DNA of 21,139 nucleotides, from the IMG/VR virus record IMGVR_UViG_3300028608_000714, positions 1-21,139 of that record; one strand, written 5' to 3'. A model generated the notes under the pieces. It was not told the DNA's origin and made no database searches. It worked only from the letters and a program-made list of their open reading frames with translations. The position numbers and the translations under genes were made by a program. Positions 1,419-19,551 of this stretch are shown here, piece after piece. Source of the DNA: a virus. Positions within the stretch are counted from its first letter, which is position 1. Each line of letters begins with the position of its first letter.

Positions 1419-1509
1419 CTGACGTCAGAGGGCGCGTGACACCCATCCCCCTAGGCGGGAGCGGGTGTCACGCGCCCTGACAGTGCTGCCTGACGTGCGC
1501 TGACGTCAG
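1419..1509. repeat. TGACGT boxes around a 15-bp inverted repeat at the end of traB (clt candidate)
   Basis: The palindrome CTGACGTCAG occurs at 1419-1428 and again at 1500-1509, where it overlaps the traB stop codon, with a half copy CTGACGT at 1490-1496. Between them, GGGCGCGTGACACCC (1430-1444) and its exact complement (1463-1477) face each other across 18 nt. In Streptomyces plasmids the cis-acting transfer locus clt, bound by the TraB C-terminus, consists of short repeats at or near traB. Position and repeat density fit that model. A terminator for the transfer operon, or an operator of the adjacent helix-turn-helix protein, is the alternative. Confidence 0.5.
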
Positions 1510-3536
1510 GCGTTGGACATCTGCGGGACGATCCGCCAGCGGCCCCGTCCGGCGTCCGCCAGGCGGCCCTCCAGGTACGCCTCCTTCAGCCGCTCGGACA
1601 CCCACGGGCGGGAGTAGCCGTTGCGGTCGCACCAGTCGGTGAAGTCCTTGGGGCCGATCACCATGCGGCCCTCGTTCTCGAACGAGGTGATGGCCTGGGC
1701 CAGGAGGTGCCGGGCCTCTGCCGGGTCGGGCTTGTGCCCGGTCTCCTGGACCAGCGGCACGTCGGCGCCGGCGCCCAGCTCGGGCAACTCCTGCTCCGGG
1801 TCGATGCCCTCGTCTTCGGAGTCGACCAGCGGTTCGGTCTCGTCGGTCATGTCGTCCTCGCTGTCGGGGGCGTCCACGTCCACGCGGCGCCGCTCGGTGT
1901 ACGCGCGGCCCGCCACCTTGGCGGCCGCCTTCTCGGTGATCGGGTCGACGGCGGCGCCGTTGCGGGCGAACCACTGCGCCACGGTCTCCATCAGCGAGAT
2001 GGAGGTATCGGTGAACCACCGGGTCCGGCCGGGGTCGGCGTACCGCTCCTCCGGGATACCGGGGGAGACCAGGTAGCAGTAGCCCGGGCGACGGTTCGCC
2101 CAGCGCTCGGGCGCGGCGCCCGCGTCCAGGACGGTGTCGGGCAGCATGAACCCGGCGGCGGTGGCGTTGGGGACGCCGAAGCACAGCCGGCCGCCCAGGG
2201 CGTCCCTGGTCGTGGTGCTGATCTGGTCGTGGCTGGGCCGCTGAAGCGACACGATCAGCGCCATGCCCGCCGACCGGGCCAGGTTCGCGATCGAGTTGAA
2301 CGCGTCGTCCCCGAGCAGGCCCAGGGAGACTCCGGCCTCCTCGAACCACACGACGTGGAACGGCAGGCCGGGGCAGCCGCACGCGGTGCCGTCGTCGTGG
2401 CACGAGTGCTTCGGGTCGGTCTGCTTCCGGGCGGCCGCGGCCTCCCACTGCCGGTACTTGTGGGCGCCCAACCAGCCGGTGCGGGCCGGGATGACGGCCT
2501 TGACGGCCTCCACCATGATCTCGGTGTCGGCGCCGCCCTCCACGGCCCAGTCATAGGCGGGCAGCAGGGGCCGGAAGTCCTGGAACCCCTTGGGGTCGGA
2601 CAGCCACATGATGACGTCCGTCCTGGTCAGGATCTCCGTCTGGACGTTCAGGGCGCCGTCGCCCTTGCCGGACCCGGTCATGCCCGCGATCAGCAGGTGG
2701 GTGGCGTTCCGCCCCTGCTTGGCGTCACCGGGCAGCCACAGGGCCAGCGGCGCTCCGTCGTCGTACACGCCGAGGACCAGCGGGTCGGTGATGGAGCCGC
2801 CGGGGACTGCGGGCCCGGCCTCTTCCCAGCGGACCGTGTCGGCGAGCATGTCCCGGGGGACGATGACCAGCTCGCCGCGCCGCTCGGAGTCGGGGTCGGG
2901 CTGGTAGCGCACCGCGGTACGCGGCACGTCCAGCGCGGAAGCGATGCCAGGCAGCGCCTTGGCCACGTCGTCGTTGGTCTGCGTGCCGGCGTCCAGCAGC
3001 AGCGGAGCGGTGACCCGGTTCGGCTCGACCTTCGCCGCGCCGATCTGGGCGCGGGCCAGGCCGACCCGCTCCAGCAGGCCCTTGTCAGCGCTCTGCCCGG
3101 CAGGGTCGGAGGTACGCAGCACCAACCGGACGTTCCACGACAGGGCCAGGACCGGCCCGCCCATCAGGTACAGGTCGTCCAGGGCGCCGGCCGTCGGCCC
3201 GGCGAGGCAGGCCCCGGTCAGCCACGCCGATCCGGCGGCGACGGTGATGGCGGAGTGGAGGCGGCGCTGCGAGCTGGTCGTCTTCCCCGCCCACCAGGTC
3301 GCTCCGGTCAGGGCGACGGAGGCGAGGGTGAGGCCGACGCCGGCGGCGGCGCTGCCCTCCCACCGCCAGTTACCCAGGGCGCCAGCCACGCCGACCCCGG
3401 CCATGCCGAGCCACGGCGGGAGGTGCGGCTGGAGGCGACGCACCAGGTAGTTGCGGGTGCTGCTGGAGGAGGCCCCGCCCCCCGTGAGGGGGAGCGGGTA
3501 GGTGCGTCCGTCCTGGTCAGTGAGCTTGCGTCCCAT
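1506..3536 (-). CDS. traB: TraB/FtsK-type DNA translocase for conjugation
   Basis: This 676-aa protein has three or four hydrophobic segments (about residues 42-145), a linker, an FtsK/SpoIIIE RecA-like motor and a C-terminal winged helix (about 610-670, including FTDWCDRNGYSRPWVSERLKEA). The Walker A loop is GMTGSGKG at 285-292 and the Walker B strand is HVVWFEE ending at 400, followed by the SLQRPSHDQISTTTRDALGGR sensor region typical of FtsK-like motors. Streptomyces TraB forms a membrane hexamer that moves double-stranded DNA between hyphae and recognises clt through its winged helix. Two residues are unusual: Gly292 replaces the usual Ser/Thr after the Walker lysine, and Glu399 replaces the Walker B Asp. 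ATG 3536 follows AAGGAGT at 8 nt. It is the last gene of the transfer operon. A phage FtsK-like protein is less likely given the Spd-like neighbours. Confidence 0.88.
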   Translation of the reverse strand: MGRKLTDQDGRTYPLPLTGGGASSSSTRNYLVRRLQPHLPPWLGMAGVGVAGALGNWRWEGSAAAGVGLTLASVALTGATWWAGKTTSSQRRLHSAITVAAGSAWLTGACLAGPTAGALDDLYLMGGPVLALSWNVRLVLRTSDPAGQSADKGLLERVGLARAQIGAAKVEPNRVTAPLLLDAGTQTNDDVAKALPGIASALDVPRTAVRYQPDPDSERRGELVIVPRDMLADTVRWEEAGPAVPGGSITDPLVLGVYDDGAPLALWLPGDAKQGRNATHLLIAGMTGSGKGDGALNVQTEILTRTDVIMWLSDPKGFQDFRPLLPAYDWAVEGGADTEIMVEAVKAVIPARTGWLGAHKYRQWEAAAARKQTDPKHSCHDDGTACGCPGLPFHVVWFEEAGVSLGLLGDDAFNSIANLARSAGMALIVSLQRPSHDQISTTTRDALGGRLCFGVPNATAAGFMLPDTVLDAGAAPERWANRRPGYCYLVSPGIPEERYADPGRTRWFTDTSISLMETVAQWFARNGAAVDPITEKAAAKVAGRAYTERRRVDVDAPDSEDDMTDETEPLVDSEDEGIDPEQELPELGAGADVPLVQETGHKPDPAEARHLLAQAITSFENEGRMVIGPKDFTDWCDRNGYSRPWVSERLKEAYLEGRLADAGRGRWRIVPQMSNA

Positions 3537-7056: not shown

Positions 7057-7295
7057 TTGGTGCCGTTCTCCTTGGGCTCAGCGAGGGCGGCGCGCAGCTC
7101 GACGGCGGCACCGCCATGGGTGCGGAGGATCGCCCACCTGCGGGCGAGTCGCTCCGCCCGCTCGATGGCGGCCTCGGCGGCTTCGGCCCGCTCCTTCCAC
7201 CGGTCGCCGCGGCGCCAGCCCTCGTTGGCGTTGGCGTACAGCGCGTCCAGGGCGTCGTCGGTGATGGTGCTCGCGGTGTAGCGCTCCGGGCTCAT
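7053..7295 (-). CDS. Short coiled-coil protein, 80 aa
   Basis: ATG 7295 overlaps the previous stop by 4 nt, and the stop overlaps the next start likewise. The product begins MSPERYTASTITDDALDALY and continues as a charged helix (GDRWKERAEAAEAAIERAERLARRW) likely to form a coiled coil. The ITDDALDALY opening followed by an AEAAIER helix is a pattern I recall from many Streptomyces phage and element proteins of unknown function. No catalytic residues are seen. Confidence 0.7.
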   Translation of the reverse strand: MSPERYTASTITDDALDALYANANEGWRRGDRWKERAEAAEAAIERAERLARRWAILRTHGGAAVELRAALAEPKENGTK

Positions 7296-7627
7296 GCGGT
7301 CTGGTCCTTCCTGGTGCAGTGGGCGGTGTCGTGCTCGGTGCCGCAGCTGGTCCACCAGCGTTCGCAGCAGCCGGAGTACAGGTCGGCCCTGGCCTGGCTC
7401 TGCCACATGCCGAGGCGGGCGGCCCGCTCGGCGCGCACGGCGGCCGCGCGCGCCTGGTCGGCGGCGACGTACTCGCGGGCGAGGGCGACCAGCAGGAGCA
7501 GCGAGGTGGCGAAGAGGCCGATGCCGTACCACCAGCCGTCTGCGCGGGCGCTGGTGGCGGCGCAGTGGCCCAGGAACAGGACGGCCAGGCCGTAGCCCAG
7601 GCAGAGCGCACGGGTGGAGGGGTTCAC
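7292..7627 (-). CDS. Membrane protein with Cys-rich tail, 111 aa
   Basis: A GTG start at 7627 overlaps the DUF4326 stop (GTGA). Two hydrophobic segments, about residues 7-25 (ALCLGYGLAVLFLGHCAAT) and 33-51 (WWYGIGLFATSLLLLVALA), form a helical hairpin. A charged helix follows, then a tail with CC, C and C-x-x-H-like residues (SGCCERWWTSCG, then TAHCTRK) that may bind zinc or form disulfides. It sits inside a chain of overlapping genes. Unknown function; an inner-membrane accessory or exclusion protein is one possibility. Confidence 0.65.
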   Translation of the reverse strand: MNPSTRALCLGYGLAVLFLGHCAATSARADGWWYGIGLFATSLLLLVALAREYVAADQARAAAVRAERAARLGMWQSQARADLYSGCCERWWTSCGTEHDTAHCTRKDQTA

Positions 7628-8058
7628 GACTGCGCTCCGTTCGCCAGCTCCAGCAGGACGTCGGCGTGGCACGCCCGGTTGATCGGGCACCAGCACATGA
7701 GGTCCCGGCCCGCCAGCTGTTCCCGGACGGCGGCCACGATCTCGGGCCGCTGCCCCAGCCACTGGCGGTACAGCTCGATGACCTGCTCGGGGGTGGCGTC
7801 CTGCACGAGGTGCCACGTGATGGACTTGTCGGGGTGGACGAAGGCGTGCTGCTGGCCGGAGGTCTTGCCGAGGCGGCCCTCGTGCTGCCACTCGCTGCCG
7901 TCGATGCCGGGGATGCGGACCTGCGTCTGCCCGAGCGGGTACGGGTTGCCCCATCGGCTGCCGCGGCCGACGTAGATGGCGCGGTCGGGGGCGCGCCATC
8001 CCTTGGCGCGGCGGCGCTGGATGCGGACAGGCTGACCGAGGGCGATCTGTCGGGCCAT
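7624..8058 (-). CDS. DUF4326 domain protein, 144 aa
   Basis: The sequence matches what I know of DUF4326: IYVGRGSRWGNPYPLG near the N-terminus, a central variable part, and LMCWCPINRACHADVLLELAN at the C-terminus with a Cys/His set that could be metal-binding or catalytic. These proteins occur in phages and mobile elements; their biochemical function is not settled as far as I know. ATG 8058 lies 3 nt after the stop of the MazG-like gene, so the two are cotranscribed and may act in the same nucleotide-related process. Confidence 0.82.
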   Translation of the reverse strand: MARQIALGQPVRIQRRRAKGWRAPDRAIYVGRGSRWGNPYPLGQTQVRIPGIDGSEWQHEGRLGKTSGQQHAFVHPDKSITWHLVQDATPEQVIELYRQWLGQRPEIVAAVREQLAGRDLMCWCPINRACHADVLLELANGAQS

Positions 8059-8061
8059 GGG

Positions 8062-8622
8062 TCAGGCCTCCTTGGTGGCCTGGCGGCGGTCGATGGCCTC
8101 GACCCATGCGACGGCGACCGCAGCCACCTGCACCAGCTCGGCGCGCAGCTTCCCCGGGTCGGACTCGGCGAGCGCCTCGTGCACTTCCTCCAGCAGGACG
8201 TCCCGCCAGGCGAGGACGCCGGCCGCAGCGGCGCGGTCGGCGTGGTCGCGGTAGCGGCGCGCGCTGTGCTGGTAGACCGGGAGGCCGGTTCCGTCGGGGT
8301 GGTTCTGCTCGCCGAACTTGGAGTCCTGGCGGGTCCGCTCGTAGCCGACCTCGACGAGGACCTGGGGGGTTGCGTTGGTCCGGTGGTCCGAGCAGTAGTC
8401 CCCGGAGTAGTCGCACTGCCAGCCCTGTGTGCGCAGGTGAGCGCGGGCGACCTCCAGCCGCTCTGTGCTGGTCTGCTCGGTGGACACCATGAACTCGCCG
8501 GTGAACTCGGTGCCGCAGTCGTCGCAGAAGACGGTGATGCGAGACGGGTAGAGCGGACTGTCCGGGTCGCGCAGGATCGCCGATACGGTCTCGGGCGTCA
8601 GGCTGGTGGGCTGGTTCTCCAT
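8062..8622 (-). CDS. MazG-like NTP pyrophosphohydrolase-family protein, 186 aa
   Basis: The C-terminal half has the hallmarks of an actinobacterial MazG-like family: RQDSKFGEQNHPDGTG, then AGVLAWRDVLLEEVHEALAESDP (an E-E-x-x-E-A metal-binding pattern) and LRAELVQVAAVAVAWVEAIDRR. The N-terminal half adds a zinc-ribbon-like part with CDDCG and later Cys/His residues. Relatives hydrolyse nucleoside triphosphates to monophosphate and pyrophosphate. In phages and elements they may change nucleotide or ppGpp pools. ATG 8622 follows GGAGGA, in a 28-nt leader almost duplicated in front of the methyltransferase gene. Activity is inferred from motifs. Confidence 0.8.
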   Translation of the reverse strand: MENQPTSLTPETVSAILRDPDSPLYPSRITVFCDDCGTEFTGEFMVSTEQTSTERLEVARAHLRTQGWQCDYSGDYCSDHRTNATPQVLVEVGYERTRQDSKFGEQNHPDGTGLPVYQHSARRYRDHADRAAAAGVLAWRDVLLEEVHEALAESDPGKLRAELVQVAAVAVAWVEAIDRRQATKEA

Positions 8623-8679
8623 GGGTTCCTCCGTGGTGGGATGGGTGGGAGGCCGCCCCGCGCTCCCTGCGGGGCGGCC
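8623..8679 (-). promoter_or_regulatory. Hairpin-plus-leader module, copy A
   Basis: A perfect hairpin GGCCGCCCCGC-7 nt-GCGGGGCGGCC (8651-8679) follows the HNH-like gene, then a 28-nt leader (8623-8650) ends at the ATG of the MazG-like gene. Copy B, at 10482-10538, has the same 11-7-11 hairpin geometry with an unrelated stem sequence, and a leader identical at about 22 of 28 positions. The hairpin probably terminates the upstream transcript; the leader carries the ribosome-binding site GGAGGA. Confidence 0.7.
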
Positions 8680-8686
8680 GACTCGG

Positions 8687-9007
8687 TCAGAACAGGGACA
8701 GGGGCTCTTCGGCGTGCCGCTCCAGCTCCCGCTGGGCGGCCAGCTGCCGGTTCCGGGCCTTCGCGTGGCAGCTGGCGCACCAGGCGCGCAGCTCCTCGAC
8801 GGGCACGGCCGCCGCGGCGACGGTGGACAGGGTCAGGTCGGCGGGGGCGATCAGCAGTCGGCCGTGGGCGCTGGTGTTGATGCAGCGCAGGCCGGTGTCG
8901 GAGTGCTGCGAGCCGCACAGGCCGCCCGTGCACTGGCACTTGTGGCCGGCGGGCTCCATGACGGCCTGCCAGATGGCGGTGGCCCCGAGGGGCGGACGCT
9001 TGCTCAT
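8687..9007 (-). CDS. HNH-like zinc protein, 106 aa
   Basis: The protein has paired cysteines (GHKCQCTGGLCG), then LRCINTSAHGRLLIAPAD, and an ending LRAWCASCHAKARNRQ, the form of an HNH C-terminal knuckle. The classical DH catalytic pair is not obvious; the only nearby residues are the His in SAHG and the Asp in APAD. It may be a diverged HNH nuclease or a related zinc protein. ATG 9007 is 1 nt after the methyltransferase stop with GGAGG upstream, so the two are coupled. A restriction or nicking partner of the methyltransferase is possible but not demonstrated. Confidence 0.65.
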   Translation of the reverse strand: MSKRPPLGATAIWQAVMEPAGHKCQCTGGLCGSQHSDTGLRCINTSAHGRLLIAPADLTLSTVAAAAVPVEELRAWCASCHAKARNRQLAAQRELERHAEEPLSLF

Positions 9008-9008
9008 G

Positions 9009-10481
9009 TCACAGCACCTCCGCCACGCGGCGGCCCAGCCACTGGGCGACGTTGCACGAGACCGCGTTCCCGGCCTGCATGGTCTGCTCGCCCTTGTTGC
9101 CGAGGACGATGTAGTCGTCCGGGAAGCGCTGCGCCAGGAGCTGCTCACGCGGCTGGATCATCCGGTAGTGGCAGTCCTCCAGCGCGGGCGCCGGCGAGGC
9201 AATGCCCGCGGAGTCGACCGTGCCCAGCGTGTGCAGGGGCTCGCCGGTCGTCTTCGTGGCCGCGTTGCGGTACGGGATGACCAGCCAGTGGTGCCGTCCC
9301 TGCCCGGTGACGGTGTCGACCGGCTCGGTGACGGGGCGGGCGCTGCTGTTGCGGCGCAGGGTGACGATGAACGAGTCGTCGGCCTGCGGCGGCGTCACCA
9401 GGGCCTCGAAGCCCTTCGGGTTCGCCATGCGGGTGCGCATCGGCTCGGCCGTCGTCGTGCAGGTGGTGTTCCACGTGCCGCCCGACGGGACCAGGACGGC
9501 GTCGCCGATCTTCGCGGTGCGCGCCGCCAGCGGCGCCGAGTCCGCCGGGTACGCCCTGCCGTCGTGCCCGCCGTGGTTGACGGTCAGGACCATGCGCCGG
9601 TCGCCGAGCAGGCCGAGGCCCTTCCGGATCCGCGTCACGGTGTTCGCCGCGAGGGGCCGCAGTCCGTGCGCGGGCCGGTCGCCGATGCGCACCCCCAGGT
9701 TCGACCAGTCGATGATCGAGGCGGCTGGGCGGACGTAGGGCTCGACGACCGCGTGGCGGCAGCGCGGCCCGTTCGGGCACCGGTACACGTACTGCTGGCC
9801 GTACTTCCCGAGCCGCCGGCCCTCCTTCTTCCAGGACTGGAAGGCGGTGACGGTCTCCTCGCACACCGGGCACCAGGCCCGCGGGCGGGGCTGCACGTCG
9901 GGCAGCGGGATGCCCTCGCGGGTGCAGACGATGTAGATCCGGTCCCGCCACTGCGGCGCCGGGCTGTTGCCGTCCTCGTCCCCGGCGTGCGCGCTCGACA
10001 GGGAGACGAACTGGATGTTGTAGCCGAGGGTGCGCATCCCGGCGAGCCAGACGTCGAACAGCTCCCAGTCCGCGGCCTCCATGACGTTCTCCACCAGGAC
10101 GGCCCGGTAGCGGTGGACCTCGGTGGCGCGGATGACGTCCCAGAAGGTGGCCCGGGTGCGCTCGAACGCGGCGCTGGCGACGGGCCCGAACTCCTCGATG
10201 CCCATCTGTCCGGGCCCGGCGGCGGTGCGGCGGCGGCGTCCGCCGGCGGGGCTCAGCTCGGTGCAGATCGGGGAGGCCCAGAGGATGTCCGTCCTGGGCA
10301 GGCGCCGCATGTCGTAGTTGTTGACGTCGGCGCACAGGTGGTCGGCGTCGGTGTGGTTCGCGGCGTGGGTCTCGATGGCGCGCTGCCAGTGGTTCGCGGC
10401 CAGCTTGAGTTCCAGGCCGGCGGCGACGAGGCCGGTGGACGATCCGCCGGCGCCGCAGAAGATGTCGGTGAAGGTGAGCAT
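9009..10481 (-). CDS. C5-cytosine DNA methyltransferase
   Basis: This 490-aa protein shows the C5-methyltransferase motifs in order: motif I DIFCGAGGSS (residues 6-15), catalytic motif IV SPICTELSPAGG with Cys73, motif VI ENV (131-133), motif VIII QWRDR (177-181), and motif X AGNAVSCN near the C-terminus. The usual PC dipeptide is replaced by P-I-C. Between motifs VIII and IX there is an inserted zinc-ribbon, CPVC (204-207) and CPNGPRC (235-241), likely part of target recognition. It should transfer methyl groups from S-adenosylmethionine to cytosine C5. On mobile elements such enzymes usually protect against host restriction. ATG 10481 follows GGAGGA. The target sequence cannot be read from the protein. 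Confidence 0.93.
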   Translation of the reverse strand: MLTFTDIFCGAGGSSTGLVAAGLELKLAANHWQRAIETHAANHTDADHLCADVNNYDMRRLPRTDILWASPICTELSPAGGRRRRTAAGPGQMGIEEFGPVASAAFERTRATFWDVIRATEVHRYRAVLVENVMEAADWELFDVWLAGMRTLGYNIQFVSLSSAHAGDEDGNSPAPQWRDRIYIVCTREGIPLPDVQPRPRAWCPVCEETVTAFQSWKKEGRRLGKYGQQYVYRCPNGPRCRHAVVEPYVRPAASIIDWSNLGVRIGDRPAHGLRPLAANTVTRIRKGLGLLGDRRMVLTVNHGGHDGRAYPADSAPLAARTAKIGDAVLVPSGGTWNTTCTTTAEPMRTRMANPKGFEALVTPPQADDSFIVTLRRNSSARPVTEPVDTVTGQGRHHWLVIPYRNAATKTTGEPLHTLGTVDSAGIASPAPALEDCHYRMIQPREQLLAQRFPDDYIVLGNKGEQTMQAGNAVSCNVAQWLGRRVAEVL

Positions 10482-10538
10482 GTGGTCCTCCGTGATGTGA
10501 TGGGTGGAGGTCCGGGCCTGTTAGCGGCAGGCCCGGAC
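10482..10538 (-). promoter_or_regulatory. Hairpin-plus-leader module, copy B
   Basis: A perfect hairpin GTCCGGGCCTG-7 nt-CAGGCCCGGAC (10510-10538) begins 2 nt after the helicase stop and is followed by a 28-nt leader (10482-10509) that ends at the methyltransferase ATG. Geometry and leader match copy A at 8623-8679. The hairpin is the likely terminator of the helicase transcript. Confidence 0.7.
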
Positions 10539-10540
10539 TG

Positions 10541-12157
10541 CTACGCGGCGGGAAGGATGAGCTGGCCGAGGACGCGGCCGACGCGGTCCTGGTCGATCAG
10601 GTCGGCGACGTCGCCGGCGGACGCCCCACGCGGCACAGAGAGGCCCAAGCGGCGGCAGAGGCCCAGCTGCTTCGCGCTCGGCGTCCCGGACCTCCAGCGG
10701 GCCTGCCGCGCGACGAACGCGTGCGGGGCGAGGACCTTGGCCTGCTGCTCCAGCCACGCCAGTGCCTCCGGCAGCGGACGGGCGATGTCGTCCTTCGGCG
10801 GGTGCACGCCGTGCGCCTCCGTCCAGCGGCGCATCCGGTACAGCCGGGTGCCGGGGTCGCGCTGGAGGAAGAGGAACATGGCGCTGTTCAGGCGGATGAA
10901 CCAGGTGCCGTCCGCGGTGCGCAGCCAGCGGATGGCGCTGCTGCCGAAGAGGTTGAACTCCTCGGCCTCCACGTGGGCGACCAGCGTGCGCCGCTTCTCG
11001 GCGGCCTCCGCCCGCTCGGCAACCTCCCGCAGGCTCTTGCCCTCCTCGGCCTCCCCGACCTCCCGCGCCGTCAGGTCGACCATCGACGCGAGCTTGTGCT
11101 TGGTGGAGGCGCCCATGACGTCCAGCAGCAGCGCGTCCTGCTTCCCGGGCGCCAGGCGGAGACCGCGGCCCACCATCTGCACGTACAGGCCGGGGCTCTT
11201 GGTGGGCCGGGCGACGACGACGCACGACGTGTGTGGCGCGTCGAACCCCTCGGTCAACACCATGCAATTGGTGAGCACCTGGACCTCTCCGGCCGTGTAG
11301 CGGGCGAGCGTCGCACGCCGTTCGTCGCGGCCCATGTCGCCCCACACCGGGGCCGCCGTGATGCCGGCCGCCGTGAGCGCGGCGGCGGCGGCCTGCGCGG
11401 TCGCCACGGTCGGGGTGAAGACGACGCCCGCCCGGTCGCTCGCGTGGTCGACGTAGGCCTTCGCGATGGCGTCCAAGGCGCCCGAGTCCTCCAGGGCCTG
11501 GCCCAGCTGCCCGTCGACCAGGTCCCCGTTCCGGGTCTTCACCTTGTCCAGGTCCAGGGTGTCCACGGTGATGCGCTTGCCGCGGACGTCGCACAGGTAG
11601 CCGTCGCCGATCATGTCGAGGATGTCCAAGCGGTAGACGACGTCCTCCCACACCTCGGCCAGGCCGCCGTCGGTGCGCGTCATGGTCGCGGTGAAGCCGG
11701 CCACGGGCGTTCCGTTCCAGGCGCCGAAGTGGGCGAGGACCTCCATGTAGGTGCGGGCGGCCGCGTGGTGGCACTCGTCGACGATGACCAGGCCGATGTC
11801 GCGGATGGCCTCGCGCCGCTTGGCTACGGCCAAGGTCTGGACGCTGGCCACGATCACGTCGGCGTCGGCGTGGTCGTCGCGCTGGGCCTTGACGATGCCG
11901 ACCCGCAGCATCGGGTCGACGGCGAGCAGCTTGGAAGCGGCCTGCTCGATCAGCTCCTCCCGGTGGGCGATCACCAGGACGCGGCGGCCGCCGAGGCTGT
12001 CGAGCATCTGGTGGGCCAGGTGGGAGAACACCACGGTTTTCCCGGCGCCGGTCGGCAGGACGACGGCCAGGCGGTTGGTGCCGGCGGCCCACCCGGCGCG
12101 TAGCGCCTCGATGGCGTCGAGCTGGTAGGGCCTGGGCTTGAAGGCGGTAATGGTCAT
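10541..12157 (-). CDS. Superfamily II DEAD/DEAH-box-type helicase
   Basis: The 538-aa product has RPYQLDAI (Q-motif-like), Walker A LPTGAGKT (Lys40), motif Ia VIAHREEL, DECH (127-130), TAT (156-158), a C-terminal RecA lobe with VLTEGFDAPHT, and motif VI QMVGRGLRLAPGK (327-339). This is the RecG/UvrB/type I restriction R-like helicase arrangement. After about residue 345 there is a non-helicase extension of about 190 aa. ATG 12157 follows GAGGTG; a longer frame upstream would run into the iteron region and is rejected. It lies just downstream of the putative origin and the Prim-Pol gene, so a role in unwinding or restarting replication of the element is likely. Confidence 0.9.
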   Translation of the reverse strand: MTITAFKPRPYQLDAIEALRAGWAAGTNRLAVVLPTGAGKTVVFSHLAHQMLDSLGGRRVLVIAHREELIEQAASKLLAVDPMLRVGIVKAQRDDHADADVIVASVQTLAVAKRREAIRDIGLVIVDECHHAAARTYMEVLAHFGAWNGTPVAGFTATMTRTDGGLAEVWEDVVYRLDILDMIGDGYLCDVRGKRITVDTLDLDKVKTRNGDLVDGQLGQALEDSGALDAIAKAYVDHASDRAGVVFTPTVATAQAAAAALTAAGITAAPVWGDMGRDERRATLARYTAGEVQVLTNCMVLTEGFDAPHTSCVVVARPTKSPGLYVQMVGRGLRLAPGKQDALLLDVMGASTKHKLASMVDLTAREVGEAEEGKSLREVAERAEAAEKRRTLVAHVEAEEFNLFGSSAIRWLRTADGTWFIRLNSAMFLFLQRDPGTRLYRMRRWTEAHGVHPPKDDIARPLPEALAWLEQQAKVLAPHAFVARQARWRSGTPSAKQLGLCRRLGLSVPRGASAGDVADLIDQDRVGRVLGQLILPAA

Positions 12158-12185
12158 GTTCACCTCGGTTCGGTTGCTGGGGCTT

Positions 12186-12505
12186 TGCGGGGAGTGCGGG
12201 GAGTGCGGGGACTCGGTGCGGGGACTTCCGCCCGTCTTCCGAGCCGGTCTGATCAGCGGTTTTGCGGGGATGCGGGGACTTGCGGGGACTTGGGAAATCC
12301 CTTGATGACGGAGAGCTGCAGAACTGATCCGTGATGACGTGCGGCACATGTGTTGTGCGATGCATGTGCGACGTGCGCGCTATAGGGGAGGCGGAGGCAG
12401 GTCCCCGCAGGTCCCCGCATCCCCGCATCGGTGCAGGTGGGACCGGATGCGGGGAGTGCTTCGACTCCCCGCACAGGTCCCCGCGGAGTCCCCGCAGTCC
12501 CCGCA
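12186..12505. repeat. Iteron field, putative replication origin
   Basis: The 8-mer TGCGGGGA occurs at 12186, 12195, 12204, 12217, 12263, 12271, 12281 and 12448. Its complement TCCCCGCA occurs at 12402, 12412, 12420, 12466, 12489 and 12498, with a one-mismatch copy at 12478. The left arm reads one way and the right arm mostly the other, around a less GC-rich centre (12289-12401) that contains GGGAAATCCC and two GATGACG copies. It fills the 358-bp gap between the Prim-Pol stop and the helicase start and holds no gene. Iterons bound by an initiator are the standard reading. Operator repeats for the helicase promoter are the alternative. Confidence 0.7.
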
Positions 12506-12515
12506 AGTCCCCCGG

Positions 12516-15170
12516 TCACGACTCGTGCCGTCCGGTGCCGCGGTCCTTGTGGACGTCGACGCGCCAGAAGTTCTGCTTCTTGTGGCTGTCGACGACCATG
12601 ACGACCTTGTGGTCACCGAAGTAGCGGCCTGCGCGCGCCTTCAGCCAGATGCCCAGCTGGTTGGCGCTCGGCGGCTCGTTGCCCTTCCGCGGCACGTGGT
12701 TGGGCAGGCCCTGGATGAGCGCCCCCGTAGAGAGGGGCTCAGTGCCGTAGGTCTCCCGCCACATCTCCAGGAAGAGGGACCACTCCTGCAGTTCGTCGTC
12801 CTGGTCGCGGGCCTCGGTGCGGTCGGCCATCCAGCCTTCGACGCCGAGGAAGTCGAGCAGGCCGGCCATGAGGCTGGCCCACTCGCTGTAGTCGCCTTTG
12901 CGGACGCGGACCTGGGGCGTCCCCGCGGCGACCCAGGCCCGGACGAGCGTGACGAGCGCGGCGACCAGGGTGGAGGCGTTCTTGCGAAGCCACGGCCGGA
13001 GGTCGCCGATGGTGAAGTTGTCGCGCTGGTCGGGGTCGGGGCAGTCGGGGTCCAGGCGGACCCAGAGGACGCGGCGGCCGTTGTCCCCGCCGGTGCGGAG
13101 CGCGTTGCCGGTGACGATCCACAGCCGGTCGTTCGGCATGCTGACCTTCGACGTAGCGCCGAGCACGCGGTCTCCCCACACCTCGTTGGTCAGGAGCGCG
13201 GACAGGACCGGGCTCTTGATGACGGAGCCGTTGGGGAGGTTGTCGAGGACGACGACGGGCTGCCCGGTGCCGTACAGCTGCGTAGTGATGCTCTTCCGCA
13301 GCTCGGTGTCGTTCTCGGGCCAAGCGGTGTCGGCGATGCCGTAGGCGTGCCGGAAGATGTCTTTCAGCAGGCTCTTGCCGGATCCGGCCGCAGTCGCGGT
13401 GATCACGAACATGGGCGTCGGCCCGTGGAAGTACGGGCGCAGGATCGGCGTGAGCAGGGCGCCGAGGTAGTGCGCGCGGTCGCTGGCCGCGACCCAGGGG
13501 AAGTCCTTCAGGACCTGGTCGAGGACGATGCCCTTGGCCCTGTCGAGGCTGTCGCGGGTCACCTGCGGGGCGAGGCGGCGCAGCGGCACCCTCGGCTCGA
13601 GGTACAGGCCCGTCGTCCGGTCGTAGCCGAGGGAGTCGAGCAGTGTGCCGTCGGGTCGGATCACGGGCGACGTGACGATGCCGCGCAGGATGGGCAGGGG
13701 CCAGGACTTGCGGCCGAGGATCGTGGAGCAGCTCTTGGGCATGAGCAGCTCGCGTTCTTCCTCCAGCTGCTCGGTGAGCGGGTTGCGCTTCACGGTGAAG
13801 CTGGAGACGTGGTCGGCGAGGTAGGCCCGCAGGTTGTCGGTGCCGAGCTGCTGGACGATCGGGTCGTCGTTGTCGTCGCGGTAGACCCAGCAGGGGCCGC
13901 CGGACCGGGTGTACAGGTCGGGCAGGCGGCCGTCCTTCATGAGCTGGAGTACTCCGTCGATGGCGTCGGCCTCGTTGGTGATGTCCAGGTCGGGGCGGGA
14001 GGAGACGGACCGCAGCTGCGGGCCGCCCTCGAACTGCTCCTGGGCGTCGGGGGCGTGGTCCGGGTCCAGCGCGGACGAGCCGTCGGCGAAGTGCTGCGCG
14101 GGCACGGACGAAAGCCGCCGGCGGGGCGGCTCGGTGCCGTACCCGTTGCGGCGCAGCTCGGCCGCCGCGGCCTTGAAGTTCCCGCGGTGTTCGAGCAGCG
14201 TGTACGCGCCGAACTTGGAGTACGGCACGTCAGCCTGGAACTCCGAACCGGTGGCGAACACCCACAGCCGGTCTTTCTCCGGGTCACGGCCGGTGGTGGC
14301 CTTGATGCCTCCGACGCCGTCCGCCCACCCCCAGTAAGTGGTGTGACCGCGCGTGATGATGGGCCGGAAGTTCCCGCGAAGGATGTCCGCCCAGTCCGCG
14401 CGGGCCTCGAAGTCCTCGCCAGGGCGCAGGCCGCCGCCGGGCAGCGGCTCCTGCGGCTTGGGCGCGGTCTTCGGCGCCTCGGGCACGGGCATCTGGTCGA
14501 CCATCCGGCAGATGTCCCGGATGGCGTCCATGGTGTCGCCGTCGATGACAGGGATGCCGGCGGGCGACCCGGCGACGCGGACGTATGGCCGACCGGAGGC
14601 GTGCACCGGGCCGCTGGACGGCTCGACCAGGCCGTATCCGCCCTCGCCGCGCGTTTCGATCAGAGGCCGTACGATCTTCGTGTTCGGCTTCTCGGCGATA
14701 CGCTGACGCTCGGAGGCGTCCCACTCGTCTTCCCGGGCCAGCCGCTGAGCCAGCTTCCGGTTCGGGGGGACGGCGGCGCCATCGAGGCGGATGCGGTAGT
14801 GCCGGCCGCCGGAGGGCGACTCCGTCACCCAGCCGTTCAGGATCGCGTGCCATGCCTCGCTGACGCGGGGGCCGGACGCCTCCATGATCTCGGTGACCTC
14901 GTCCAACAGGCCTTCGCGGATAGCGAGGCCCTCGAACTCGATCAGCTCGACGGCACCGGACACCGCGCCGTAGACGACGGCGATGCCGCGGGGCCGGTCG
15001 CCGCCGAACCACGTGTCGTGATCGGCGGGAGTGGTCCGGTCCACCTTGTACTGCAGCCAGGACACGGCCGGCTTCTTGCTGCCGTCGGCCTTGATGGGGA
15101 GGACGCACAGGCCAGCGTCGTGCAGCTCGCGGGCGGCGGCCCGGAGGTCGGTGGGCTGTGAGTCGGTCAA
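12516..15170 (-). CDS. Bifunctional primase-polymerase (Prim-Pol) with D5-like helicase domain
   Basis: The TTG start at 15170 has GGGAG upstream and overlaps the previous stop (TTGA), giving 884 aa. Residues 10-130 resemble Prim-Pol: LCVLPIKADGSKKPAVSW, GIAVVYGAVSGAVELIEFEG with an E-F-E (78-80) where D-x-D is usual, and SPSGGRHYR (119-126) with His124. A central region follows. The C-terminal half is an SF3/D5-like ATPase: TATAAGSGKS (Lys599), VVVLDNLPNG (Asp643), and TGNAL with RR further on as sensor and arginine finger. Prim-Pol proteins of AICEs and phages prime and may extend DNA at the element's origin; the iteron field begins directly downstream. No separate replicase gene is in the window, so host polymerase is presumably used. 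Confidence 0.9.
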   Translation of the reverse strand: MTDSQPTDLRAAARELHDAGLCVLPIKADGSKKPAVSWLQYKVDRTTPADHDTWFGGDRPRGIAVVYGAVSGAVELIEFEGLAIREGLLDEVTEIMEASGPRVSEAWHAILNGWVTESPSGGRHYRIRLDGAAVPPNRKLAQRLAREDEWDASERQRIAEKPNTKIVRPLIETRGEGGYGLVEPSSGPVHASGRPYVRVAGSPAGIPVIDGDTMDAIRDICRMVDQMPVPEAPKTAPKPQEPLPGGGLRPGEDFEARADWADILRGNFRPIITRGHTTYWGWADGVGGIKATTGRDPEKDRLWVFATGSEFQADVPYSKFGAYTLLEHRGNFKAAAAELRRNGYGTEPPRRRLSSVPAQHFADGSSALDPDHAPDAQEQFEGGPQLRSVSSRPDLDITNEADAIDGVLQLMKDGRLPDLYTRSGGPCWVYRDDNDDPIVQQLGTDNLRAYLADHVSSFTVKRNPLTEQLEEERELLMPKSCSTILGRKSWPLPILRGIVTSPVIRPDGTLLDSLGYDRTTGLYLEPRVPLRRLAPQVTRDSLDRAKGIVLDQVLKDFPWVAASDRAHYLGALLTPILRPYFHGPTPMFVITATAAGSGKSLLKDIFRHAYGIADTAWPENDTELRKSITTQLYGTGQPVVVLDNLPNGSVIKSPVLSALLTNEVWGDRVLGATSKVSMPNDRLWIVTGNALRTGGDNGRRVLWVRLDPDCPDPDQRDNFTIGDLRPWLRKNASTLVAALVTLVRAWVAAGTPQVRVRKGDYSEWASLMAGLLDFLGVEGWMADRTEARDQDDELQEWSLFLEMWRETYGTEPLSTGALIQGLPNHVPRKGNEPPSANQLGIWLKARAGRYFGDHKVVMVVDSHKKQNFWRVDVHKDRGTGRHES

Positions 15171-15445
15171 CGGGTGCTCCCGTGGTACTTGGAAAGGTGG
15201 TACGCCTTGATGCCGTCGACGAAGGCGGCGACTCCGCCGGGCCCGCGCGGTGCGGGATTCCCGTCCTCGCCCTTCACGCGGTCGCTCGCGCAGACCGGGC
15301 CTTCCAGGCGGTGCGGGCAGCCGGGGCGCAGGCACTCGTACCTGGCTCGCTGCCCGTCCAGGTCGACGAACAGGGCGCCCTCGAAGGGCTCCGGGGCGGC
15401 CGCGCGGGCCCGGGACACCCCGGGCCGCGCGGCGGTGGCGGTCAA
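15167..15445 (-). CDS. Small zinc-finger-like protein, 92 aa
   Basis: A TTG start at 15445 overlaps the previous stop (TTGA), and the stop overlaps the Prim-Pol start in the same way, so all three genes are translationally coupled. The C-terminal two-thirds contains ECLRPGCPHRLEGPVC and ends DGIKAYHLSKYHGSTR, a possible Cys/His zinc site. The first 20 residues are Ala/Arg/Pro-rich and may lie outside the folded part; a GTG ten codons in is an alternative start. As the immediate partner of the primase gene it may be a replication accessory factor or DNA-binding protein. Family not recognised. Confidence 0.65.
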   Translation of the reverse strand: MTATAARPGVSRARAAAPEPFEGALFVDLDGQRARYECLRPGCPHRLEGPVCASDRVKGEDGNPAPRGPGGVAAFVDGIKAYHLSKYHGSTR

Positions 15446-17318: not shown

Positions 17319-17615
17319 GTGCCAACACCTTTGGCAGGAAGGGTGCTGGTCCAATGCGAAAATCGAACACGTGATCGGTTGGGGGCGGTGGCATTGCAGC
17401 AACAGCACGGCCGGGTTTGGTTTTTCTTCAGCGACGACGTACCCCCTGATGGGGACCTGATGATCCCCATCGTGAACGAGCACGGTCTGGCCATCGCTGT
17501 GAGACCGAATGCGGGGTTGGAACAGGCGATGCTCGACGATCTGAACAGGGTCGCCGACCATGTAGTGGGGGTCGGTCTCGCGCACCTGAATGTGAGTGCG
17601 CTCTTGGCCTCCTGA
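17319..17615 (+). CDS. Hypothetical 98-aa protein upstream of int
   Basis: The frame opens at a GTG at 17319 and ends 16 bp before the integrase start. The product contains RVWFFFSDDVPPDGDLMIPIV and VNEHGLAIAVRPNAGLEQAML, which read like a small alpha/beta fold. The ribosome-binding site is weak (a GGTG tract), so the start is uncertain. The codon pattern is somewhat less GC-biased than in neighbouring genes, and no homologue comes to mind. Its position could mean cotranscription with int. Confidence 0.5.
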   Translation: MPTPLAGRVLVQCENRTRDRLGAVALQQQHGRVWFFFSDDVPPDGDLMIPIVNEHGLAIAVRPNAGLEQAMLDDLNRVADHVVGVGLAHLNVSALLAS

Positions 17616-17631
17616 GCGAGAGGAGCGAGCC

Positions 17632-19287
17632 ATGCCGTCAGCACGCCGGGCAGGCAGCATCTACCGACGCTGCGAGTGCCGCGGCGAGGACGGCAAACTG
17701 CTGGGGGCCTCGTGCCCGAAGCTGAAGCGTAAGAGCCACGGCACCGTAGCGGTCCGCCAGGAACTACCGCCGGACGCCGCGGGGAAGCGCAGAACATGGA
17801 GACGCACCGGTTACGGCAGCGTCGCGGAGGCTCAGGGCGACCTCTCCCGCCTACAGGCCATTCTCGACCTCCCCGGTGACGATCCCGCTGAACAGCAGCG
17901 CGTGGGCGATCTACTCGCCGACATCGCCCGGCGCCGCGCCGATATCCCCCAGGCCGCAGAGGTGCAGCGGCGCTTGGGCGTGGGCATTCCGCTCGACGGC
18001 ACCACGACCGTGGGCGAGTGGCTCGACCGGTGGATGGCCGGCAAGAAGACCAGGAGCACGACGCTCGCGGGCTATCGCTCGCACATCAGAGTCCACCTGA
18101 AGCCACGGATCGGACACCTCCGCCTCGACAGGCTGTCGGTCGGCCACGTCCAGGAGATGTTCGACGCCATCGCTGACGAGTCGGACGTCATCCGTGCCGA
18201 GAATCAGGCTCGCCGCGAGCAAGAGGCACGGGCGAAGTGGACGATGCCGGGACGGCCACCGGCCGCGGCGCGCGAGCGCTTGGCCGCCGAGCGCGAGAAG
18301 TTGGCCGCGATGAAGCCGTACCGGAAGGCCAACGGGCCAGCCACACGCCACGCGATCCGCCGCACGCTGCGCACGGCGCTGAACAAGGCGATCGCCGAGC
18401 AGCTCATCACCTTCAACGCAGCGAAGCACGTCGAACTCGGCAGTTCCGCGCGCCCGAAGGGCCTGCTGTGGACGGCTGAGCGCATCAGCCGGTGGAGGGA
18501 CACCGGCGTGGTCCCCAGCCCCGTCATGGTCTGGAGCCCCGAGCAGCTGGGCGCGTTCCTCGACGCAGCTGAGGAATACCCGCTGTACGCCTTCTTTCAC
18601 CTGGTCGCGCACCATGGCCTCCGCCGAGGTGAGGGCGTCGGCGCGGATTGGGCACACGTACACCTGGACGTCGACCCGCCGCGTATCGACGTGCTCACCG
18701 AGATCGTGGTGGACGGCTGGACGCCGATCGAAACGCAGCCCAAGACGGACAGCAGCATGGCGTCGGTGATGCTCGACCGGGAGACCGTGGCCGTGCTGCG
18801 CGAGCATCGTGCCCGCCAGGAGGCTGCGCGTGCGGCACGCCTGGCCGCCGGGCAGACCTGGGTCGACACCGGCAAGGTCTTCGCGGCCGAGGATGGCAGC
18901 TGGCTCCACCCCGACATCGTGTCCAAGGAGTTCAAGCGGATCGTGGCGGCGGCCGACCTGCCGCCCATCAACCTCCGCGACCTCCGCCACGGCGCGGCCG
19001 CGTTGGTGAAGGCGGCCGGCGGCGACATCGACGACGCCAGTAAGAAGCTGCGGCACAGCACGATCGTGCTGACCGCCGATACGTACATGAGCCTCTTCCA
19101 GGAGTACGAGCAGGACCTGACGGAGCGGGCGGCGGCTGCCGTGCCGCGGGCCCGGCGCGGGCGTGGAACGGCCCCCGGTGCGGGCGCTGTACCGCATCAG
19201 GGGCCGGGTGCACCGCAGCCAGCAGGCGCGGATGCTGATGACACCACGGTACGGGCCAGCACTGACATGGGGGAGTCCTCGGCGTAG
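17632..19287 (+). CDS. int: Tyrosine site-specific integrase
   Basis: The 551-aa product starts at ATG 17632 behind GAGAGGAGCGAG. The N-terminus has a Cys-containing stretch (RRCECRGEDGKLLGASCPKL) common in streptomycete integrases, then a SAM-like core-binding domain (TVGEWLDRWMAGKKTRSTTLAGYRSH region) with a long charged insertion. Catalytic residues of the C-terminal domain are visible: Arg331 (HHGLRRGEG), Lys371 (QPKTDSS), Arg452 (LRDLRHG), His475 (LRHST) and the nucleophile Tyr485 (ADTYMSLF). The first position of the HxxR box is Arg449 rather than His. It integrates the element by recombination at the tRNA core 220 bp downstream. The C-terminal 50 residues are low-complexity. Assignment is firm. 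Confidence 0.95.
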   Translation: MPSARRAGSIYRRCECRGEDGKLLGASCPKLKRKSHGTVAVRQELPPDAAGKRRTWRRTGYGSVAEAQGDLSRLQAILDLPGDDPAEQQRVGDLLADIARRRADIPQAAEVQRRLGVGIPLDGTTTVGEWLDRWMAGKKTRSTTLAGYRSHIRVHLKPRIGHLRLDRLSVGHVQEMFDAIADESDVIRAENQARREQEARAKWTMPGRPPAAARERLAAEREKLAAMKPYRKANGPATRHAIRRTLRTALNKAIAEQLITFNAAKHVELGSSARPKGLLWTAERISRWRDTGVVPSPVMVWSPEQLGAFLDAAEEYPLYAFFHLVAHHGLRRGEGVGADWAHVHLDVDPPRIDVLTEIVVDGWTPIETQPKTDSSMASVMLDRETVAVLREHRARQEAARAARLAAGQTWVDTGKVFAAEDGSWLHPDIVSKEFKRIVAAADLPPINLRDLRHGAAALVKAAGGDIDDASKKLRHSTIVLTADTYMSLFQEYEQDLTERAAAAVPRARRGRGTAPGAGAVPHQGPGAPQPAGADADDTTVRASTDMGESSA

Positions 19288-19507: not shown

Positions 19508-19551
19508 GACTTTTAATCCATTGGTTGTGGGTTCGAGTCCCACAGGGCCTA
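19508..19551 (+). tRNA. 3' fragment of tRNA-Lys(UUU); attachment core (attR or attP)
   Basis: The segment has the anticodon loop CTTTTAA (anticodon UUU), a T-arm GTGGG-TTCGAGT-CCCAC (19527-19543), a 7-nt acceptor strand AGGGCCT and discriminator A. The sequence to its left does not supply the matching 5' half: the anticodon stem would need ATGGA but reads TCAGA, and no D-arm or 5' acceptor strand precedes it. This is what remains at the int-proximal end when an element integrates within a tRNA gene; the restored complete gene should be at the other end, left of this window. Integration into tRNA 3' halves is standard for AICEs. Confidence 0.8.

What the first reader, a model, noticed from the sequence alone, without database searches (positions are those of the whole stretch)
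8623..10538. Methyltransferase-HNH cassette bracketed by duplicated hairpin-leader modules
Two modules have the same build: a 29-nt hairpin (11-bp stem, 7-nt loop) just after a stop codon, then a 28-nt leader ending at an ATG. The leaders agree at about 22 of 28 positions while the hairpin stems are unrelated. They bracket exactly the methyltransferase and HNH-like genes. This suggests a cassette-swapping system: conserved leaders as recombination homology, with each gene block carrying its own terminator, as with phage morons.
Basis: partly seen in the sequence, partly recalled or inferred. Interest (0 to 1): 0.72.

Follow-up and report, generated by a model that had tools for sequence, protein, structure and literature searches.

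The report
Conserved hairpin-leader socket for swappable cargo
In a family of Streptomyces conjugative elements, a constant ~60-base hairpin-plus-ribosome-site unit sits right after a replication helicase gene, and different elements carry completely different cargo genes (often DNA methyltransferases) starting exactly at its end, so it acts as a standard plug-in point for exchangeable genes.

Summary
The window is a Streptomyces-type AICE (TraB, Prim-Pol, helicase, integrase), although it is filed as a virus record. Both hairpins and leaders are where stated (22/28 leader match). All 35 distinct relatives with a close helicase (>=77%) carry the same unit: a hairpin 1-3 nt after the helicase stop, then a constant leader ending at a start codon. 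About 20 unrelated gene families follow it. Over 276 element pairs the unit is 93% identical (helicase third positions 62%), and matching stops at the start codon (median 3 nt). Stems covary. The leader is nearly absent elsewhere: 1 exact copy in 392 Streptomyces genomes, and that one lies in such an element. In isolate element L084 the methyltransferase-HNH-hairpin-2 block is missing and the MazG-like gene follows leader 1. In L061 the methyltransferase is replaced but the HNH gene and hairpin 2 remain. L081 joins an L080-like helicase to L072-like downstream DNA at the unit's left edge. Corrections: the stems are two standard family types, not gene-specific terminators; no U-tract or promoter is present, so cargo is probably co-transcribed. 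That recombination uses the unit as homology, and that it sets cargo expression, are inferred.

The parts
10510..10538 (-). hairpin type 1 (11-bp stem, 7-nt loop), 2 nt after the helicase stop
   Evidence: model R2 79 bits; stem covariation across 20 sequences
10482..10509 (-). conserved 28-nt leader 1 with Shine-Dalgarno GGAGG, ends at methyltransferase ATG
9009..10481 (-). cargo: C5 cytosine DNA methyltransferase
   Evidence: PF00145 1e-29; phrog_116
8687..9007 (-). cargo: HNH-like small protein
   Evidence: weak HNH match phrog_1571 4.5e-4; 80% aa / 88.7% nt identical in L061 behind a different methyltransferase
8651..8679 (-). hairpin type 2 (11-bp stem, 7-nt loop), 7 nt after the HNH-like stop
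   Evidence: model R1 71 bits
8623..8650 (-). conserved 28-nt leader 2, ends at MazG-like ATG
8062..8622 (-). cargo: MazG-like protein; follows leader 1 directly in L084 (90.7% nt identity)
Evidence: phrog_2831 6e-29, function unknown.
7624..8058 (-). cargo: DUF4326 protein
   Evidence: PF14216 2e-22; first cargo gene in L056
10541..12157 (-). backbone: helicase that marks the left side of the cargo site
   Evidence: PF04851/PF00271; 80 relatives; start chosen by codon bias and RBS
7292..7627 (-). backbone gene bb1, first conserved gene to the right of the cargo site
12516..15290 (-). backbone: Prim-Pol replication protein (start approximate)
   Evidence: PF09250 1e-7
1506..3536 (-). backbone: TraB transfer ATPase, diagnostic of an AICE
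   Evidence: NF041214 plasmid_TraB, 929 bits against cut-off 800
17596..19287 (+). tyrosine integrase
   Evidence: PF00589 5e-10

Best explanation
The hairpin-leader unit is the conserved left edge of a cargo site in a family of Streptomyces AICEs. SHOWN by comparison: an invariant ~60-nt unit (hairpin 1-3 nt after the helicase stop, then a constant leader with GGAGG, about 5 nt, start codon) is followed in different elements by unrelated genes beginning exactly at the start codon. Further units of the same plan separate successive cargo blocks, and blocks are gained, lost or replaced with junctions at the unit. INFERRED: (1) recombination between co-resident elements resolves within the unit or flanking backbone, so any incoming gene gets the same 5' end; (2) the unit is transcribed within one operon, the hairpin insulating or processing the mRNA and lowering read-through, while the unstructured leader gives each cargo gene a context-independent ribosome site, making it an expression socket. 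Selection on (2) keeps the sequence constant, and that constancy in turn makes it a junction for exchange.
For: 35 of 35 distinct elements with a helicase >=77% identical carry the unit there, model R2 52-85 bits (20 of these trained the model). About 20 cargo families follow it. Pairwise identity: unit 0.93; helicase third positions at conserved residues 0.62; cargo start 0.63 against 0.61 for shuffled sequence. Matching ends a median 3 nt from the first base of the start codon. Stem: 94% of cells paired, 15 two-sided changes against 5.2 shuffled. Cassette absent in L084, partly replaced in L061. L081 is recombinant at the left edge. 27 cargo changes on a 34-row helicase tree. Leader specificity. 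Ten isolate-derived loci have canonical leaders with 9 different cargo families.
Against: No transcript data. Junctions at the unit could also arise if recombination runs in the ~85-90% identical flanking backbone genes and selection keeps only clean gene starts. The L081 junction comes from a metagenome contig. Leader copies within the window are not homogenised. The more distant helicase clade (60-65%) mostly lacks this unit and carries a conserved gene there instead, so the socket is a clade trait.
Confidence: 0.72

Rival explanations
1. Ordinary terminators plus ordinary ribosome sites: the helicase and the HNH block each end in a standard Streptomyces terminator, and the leaders resemble each other because good RBSs do.
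For: Streptomyces terminators often have few U residues and very stable hairpins (PMC12207403). The hairpins follow stop codons.
Against: The leader is conserved over ~28 nt, well beyond the Shine-Dalgarno, and is almost absent from 392 Streptomyces genomes: 1 exact match, in an AICE; the 2-mismatch hits other than the AICE copy in G001 lack a hairpin. There is no room for a promoter between hairpin and start codon, and none was found. The unit evolves more slowly than synonymous sites.
Confidence: 0.12
2. The unit is a regulatory site (operator, RNA switch or antitermination signal) that places all cargo genes under one control, and recombination junctions fall there only because functional cargo must keep it. 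Comparable to SAS/ESAS of cluster K mycobacteriophages or EGeRS1 of pLS20 plasmids.
For: Strong constraint on hairpin and leader. Known parallels with conserved pre-RBS repeats ahead of variable genes (PMC3203893; PMC8708921). The leader's CCTCC can pair with GGAGG.
Against: Two unrelated stems serve the same leader within one element, so a sequence-specific operator is unlikely. The CCTCC anti-SD is absent in L078, L079 and L082. Not exclusive of the socket reading.
Confidence: 0.35
3. A dedicated site-specific or hairpin-targeted recombination system mobilises cassettes, as an integron does with attC hairpins.
For: Array-like repeats of hairpin-leader-gene, up to 3 units in L092; structured, covarying hairpins.
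Against: No second recombinase was found in the window apart from the integrase. Stem sequences differ between units, and no attC-like core was seen by eye.
Confidence: 0.05
4. Assembly artefact: the repeated unit joins unrelated contigs in metagenomes.
For: Many relatives, including L080 and L081, are metagenome contigs; L083 ends near the unit.
Against: The same diversity is seen in isolate-derived elements. L081 differs from L080 just upstream of the unit, and L083 ends where those two haplotypes diverge, not at the repeat.
Confidence: 0.03

Closest known systems
[quoted passage not shown]
   Same: A constant sequence holding the RBS just before ATG, often preceded by an inverted repeat, repeated within genomes and found ahead of different gene families; rare outside the group.
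   Different: Different sequence and element type (phage against AICE). SAS is 13 bp in 11-19 copies per genome; here there are 1-3 copies at one locus. ESAS repeats showed little support for RNA hairpins, whereas these stems covary. Not described as a cargo swap junction in the passages read.
Short conserved boundary sequences proposed for phage mosaicism (as discussed in PMC3029335)
   Same: Short conserved sequence at gene borders where unrelated modules are exchanged.
   [quoted passage not shown] Here the boundary is a structured hairpin plus RBS, in a conjugative element.
EGeRS1 regions ahead of establishment genes on pLS20-type plasmids (PMC8708921)
   Different: 420-750 bp long and in plasmids of that family; Streptomyces AICEs transfer double-stranded DNA (established knowledge), so the single-strand promoter idea does not carry over easily.
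AICE cargo diversity within families (PMC9513070; PMC3218068)
   Same: Related AICEs with different cargo genes.
   Different: 'Hairpin' and 'terminator' do not occur in PMC3218068, and the passages of PMC9513070 read mention no conserved cargo-border sequence.
Integron gene cassettes (own knowledge)
   Same: Promoterless genes in an array separated by structured repeats.
   Different: No integron-type recombinase or attC core seen; the repeat lies 5' of each gene as a leader.

Membership tests
AICE (actinomycete integrative and conjugative element) | FtsK/SpoIIIE-type TraB transfer protein | tested here: met
   NF041214 plasmid_TraB 929 bits, cut-off 800
AICE (actinomycete integrative and conjugative element) | Integrase plus replication module | tested here: met
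   PF00589 and PF09250
AICE (actinomycete integrative and conjugative element) | Two att direct repeats at a tRNA gene | tested here: inconclusive
   A tRNA-like 3' half at 19508-19550 (by eye); only one copy in the window
SAS/ESAS of cluster K phages | Consensus GGGATAGGAGCCC | tested here: not met
   Leader consensus is CCACCCATCACACCACGGAGG
SAS/ESAS of cluster K phages | Conserved RBS-containing repeat within a few nt of start codons of different gene families, with an upstream inverted repeat | tested here: met
Integron cassette array | Integron integrase and attC sites | tested here: inconclusive
   The only recombinase found in the window is a tyrosine integrase next to the tRNA-like end; attC was judged by eye only and no attC covariance search was run
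Canonical intrinsic terminator | GC-rich hairpin followed by a U-tract | tested here: not met
   0 terminator-like sites in 8500-12600; hairpin present, about 2 U in the next 10 nt
Canonical intrinsic terminator | RNA 3' ends at the site | not testable with these tools
   No transcript data
Boundary sequence for modular exchange | Module junctions coincide with the conserved sequence | tested here: met
Boundary sequence for modular exchange | Exchange occurs by recombination in that sequence | not testable with these tools
   Needs recombination assays

The most novel reading that the evidence does not exclude
The unit is a dedicated plug-in element: a structured recombination and expression junction that lets conjugative elements assemble arrays of promoterless cargo (methyltransferases and other possible anti-defence genes) without a cassette recombinase, the hairpin itself promoting exchange.
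Probability: 0.12. Interest if true: 0.85.

Novelty: new variant of a known kind. Interest (0 to 1): 0.62.

Why it matters
How mosaic mobile elements exchange single genes cleanly is a long-standing question, because conserved border sequences are rarely found. Here the border is explicit, repeated in 35 elements and specific to the family, so exchange rates, homology needs and the effect on expression can be tested directly in Streptomyces. It also gives a search handle (models R1, R2) for cargo sites carrying possible anti-restriction genes: 8 of 35 first-cargo genes are DNA methyltransferases of several types (L086 by motif).

Tried and rejected
Promoter and U-tract terminator scans of the region: nothing. 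Rfam: no match. BLAST of the 62-nt unit against phages and plasmids: no match. Leader travelling with the methyltransferase: rejected, since close homologues (87-88%) in L007 and L008 and the plasmid homologues lack it. Helicase protein searches over Streptomyces genomes failed twice. The genome contigs helicase scan returned mostly distant helicases. My automatic gene calls split or missed a few ORFs (for example L086, corrected).

Full report
OBSERVATION. On the minus strand the window has two modules of one plan. Module 1 (hairpin 10510-10538, leader 10482-10509) lies between the helicase stop and the methyltransferase ATG. Module 2 (hairpin 8651-8679, leader 8623-8650) lies between the HNH-like stop and the MazG-like ATG. 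Leaders match at 22 of 28 positions. The leader pattern is not expected by chance, and neither are stems of this length (5 observed, 0.25 in shuffles).

WHAT THE ELEMENT IS. It is filed as a virus record, but it carries a plasmid TraB at 929 bits (cut-off 800), a Prim-Pol protein, a helicase and a tyrosine integrase, with a tRNA-like 3' half next to the integrase (by eye). This is the make-up of a Streptomyces AICE. Only one copy of the tRNA-like stretch lies in the window, so the element may be cut at one end.

RELATIVES. A helicase search of IMG/VR gave 80 loci, a methyltransferase search gave 23, and the leader pattern gave 27 stretches. Gene order in the family is Prim-Pol, helicase, variable cargo, then bb1, bb2, bb3, bb4, Spd-like and TraB-like genes. 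In all 35 distinct elements whose helicase is >=77% identical and whose contig reaches past it, a hairpin begins 1-3 nt after the helicase stop and a leader with a Shine-Dalgarno follows (model R2 52-85 bits; 20 of these sequences trained the model). The stop-to-start distance is 58-61 nt in the 24 loci with the canonical leader. About 20 different gene families start there: C5 methyltransferases of three types, a D12 adenine methyltransferase, a PAPS-reductase-like protein, the MazG-like gene, the DUF4326 gene and many unknowns.

CONSERVATION. Among the 24 canonical loci (276 pairs) the mean identities are: helicase protein 0.86, helicase third positions at conserved residues 0.62, hairpin plus leader 0.93, first part of the cargo gene 0.63 against 0.61 for shuffled sequence. 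Ungapped matching from the first base of the start codon runs a median of 3 nt, that is, the start codon alone; the only pairs that go on beyond 30 nt are those sharing the same cargo. The unit is therefore more constrained than synonymous sites, and homology ends at the start codon. Two of the 24 loci (L063, L236) are the same or near-identical elements, and the elements are related, so pairs are not independent.

HAIRPIN. For type-1 stems, 94% of cells pair, 15 cells have two-sided changes (5.2 in shuffles, 0 of 500 reach it), and sliding the partner by one column drops pairing to about 50-58%. Type 2 (GGCCGCCCC...) follows the first cargo block in most multi-module elements, whatever the gene before it. 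So the two 'unrelated' stems are two standard family types. Because unrelated stems serve the same leader inside one element, pairing matters more than sequence, which speaks for an RNA or DNA hairpin rather than an operator. There is no U-tract and no sigma-70-like promoter. With about 28 nt between hairpin and start codon, cargo must be transcribed through the hairpin unless an unusual promoter exists, so a full terminator is unlikely. Streptomyces hairpin terminators with few U residues do exist (PMC12207403), so partial termination cannot be excluded.

PRESENCE, ABSENCE AND REPLACEMENT. Window against L084 (isolate-type record): the last 300 nt of the helicase are 89.6% identical, unit 1 is shared, the 1.86-kb methyltransferase-HNH-hairpin-2 block is absent, and the MazG-like gene resumes directly after the leader at 90.7% nt identity. 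Window against L061: helicase 91.1%, unrelated methyltransferase, HNH-like gene 88.7% nt, hairpin 2 with one change, then another gene after leader 2. L023: methyltransferase 89%, hairpin 2 and leader, then bb1, with HNH, MazG-like and DUF4326 genes missing. The MazG-like family occurs behind type-1 units (L084, L096) and type-2 units (window, L056, L058, L092). On a helicase tree of 34 rows the first cargo changes at least 27 times.

A RECOMBINANT. L081 is 98-100% identical to L080 along the helicase (92% in the last 50 nt) and 100% identical to L072 from the unit onward for about 400 nt and nearly so for over 3 kb apart from a short gapped stretch, while L080 and L072 differ on both sides (0.98/0.57 and 0.79/1.00). 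The switch lies at the end of the helicase or the hairpin's left edge. L081 has its own few differences from L080 in the last 30 nt of the helicase, so the exact donor is unknown. A third contig, L083, ends exactly where the L080 and L081 haplotypes part, as an assembler would do if both were present. These are metagenome contigs, so a chimera is unlikely but not excluded.

SPECIFICITY. In 392 Streptomyces genomes the leader has one exact match, inside an AICE (L236), no one-mismatch copies and 19 two-mismatch copies; apart from the AICE copy in G001 (L216), those lack the hairpin. The unit has no BLAST match in phage or plasmid collections. Model R2 over 1.26 Mb of control loci hits, besides the window, clearly only L009 and L023. 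The methyltransferase's close relatives in other elements lack the unit. The more distant helicase clade mostly has a conserved gene there instead. A model search of 392 Streptomyces genomes found 14 with a match; several are diverged hairpin-leader units in other AICE-like settings, including one ahead of an SSB-like gene and one ahead of a MazG-like gene. The plan is thus probably older than this exact sequence.

INTERPRETATION. Shown: a conserved, structured 5' unit marks the border of a cargo site, and cargo changes with junctions at that unit. Inferred: that exchange uses the unit as homology (flanking backbone homology could serve), and that the unit gives each cargo gene a uniform, insulated translation start. 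The nearest known things are SAS/ESAS of cluster K mycobacteriophages (PMC3203893), whose function still requires experimental verification according to a 2025 paper (PMC12699233); boundary sequences in phage mosaicism (PMC3029335); and EGeRS1 of pLS20 plasmids (PMC8708921). None is the same sequence or the same setting, so I rate this a new variant of a known kind.

Noticed in passing
window 1-21139: The IMG/VR virus record is an AICE (TraB equivalog, Prim-Pol, integrase), so the virus label is probably wrong; many related IMG/VR records look the same.
   Followed up: partly
window 19508-19550: 3' half of a tRNA gene (anticodon loop reads TTT, tRNA-Lys-like) next to the integrase, a likely att site; no second copy in the window.
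   Followed up: partly
L057, L074, L075, L098 (L076 intact but with G-U pairs): When a second type-1 unit lies downstream, the helicase-proximal hairpin and leader are shortened or altered; two identical units were never seen in one element.
   Followed up: no
L241, L243, L253, L249 (Streptomyces genomes): Diverged hairpin-leader units in other AICE-like elements, one ahead of an SSB-like gene and one between a distant methyltransferase and a MazG-like gene: the plan may be widespread.
   Followed up: partly
window 8055-8065 against L084: Right after the MazG-like stop the two elements share GGAGGCCTGACCC up to the next start codon and then diverge (DUF4326 against another gene): a second swap border without a hairpin.
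   Followed up: no
window leaders 8623-8650, 10482-10509: CCTCC at the hairpin/leader joint is complementary to the GGAGG ribosome site; absent in the L078/L079/L082 subclade.
   Followed up: partly
L009 6730-6795: A type-2 unit in an element found only through its methyltransferase, ahead of a homologue of the L060 first cargo gene: unit and cargo can occur together in another backbone.
   Followed up: partly
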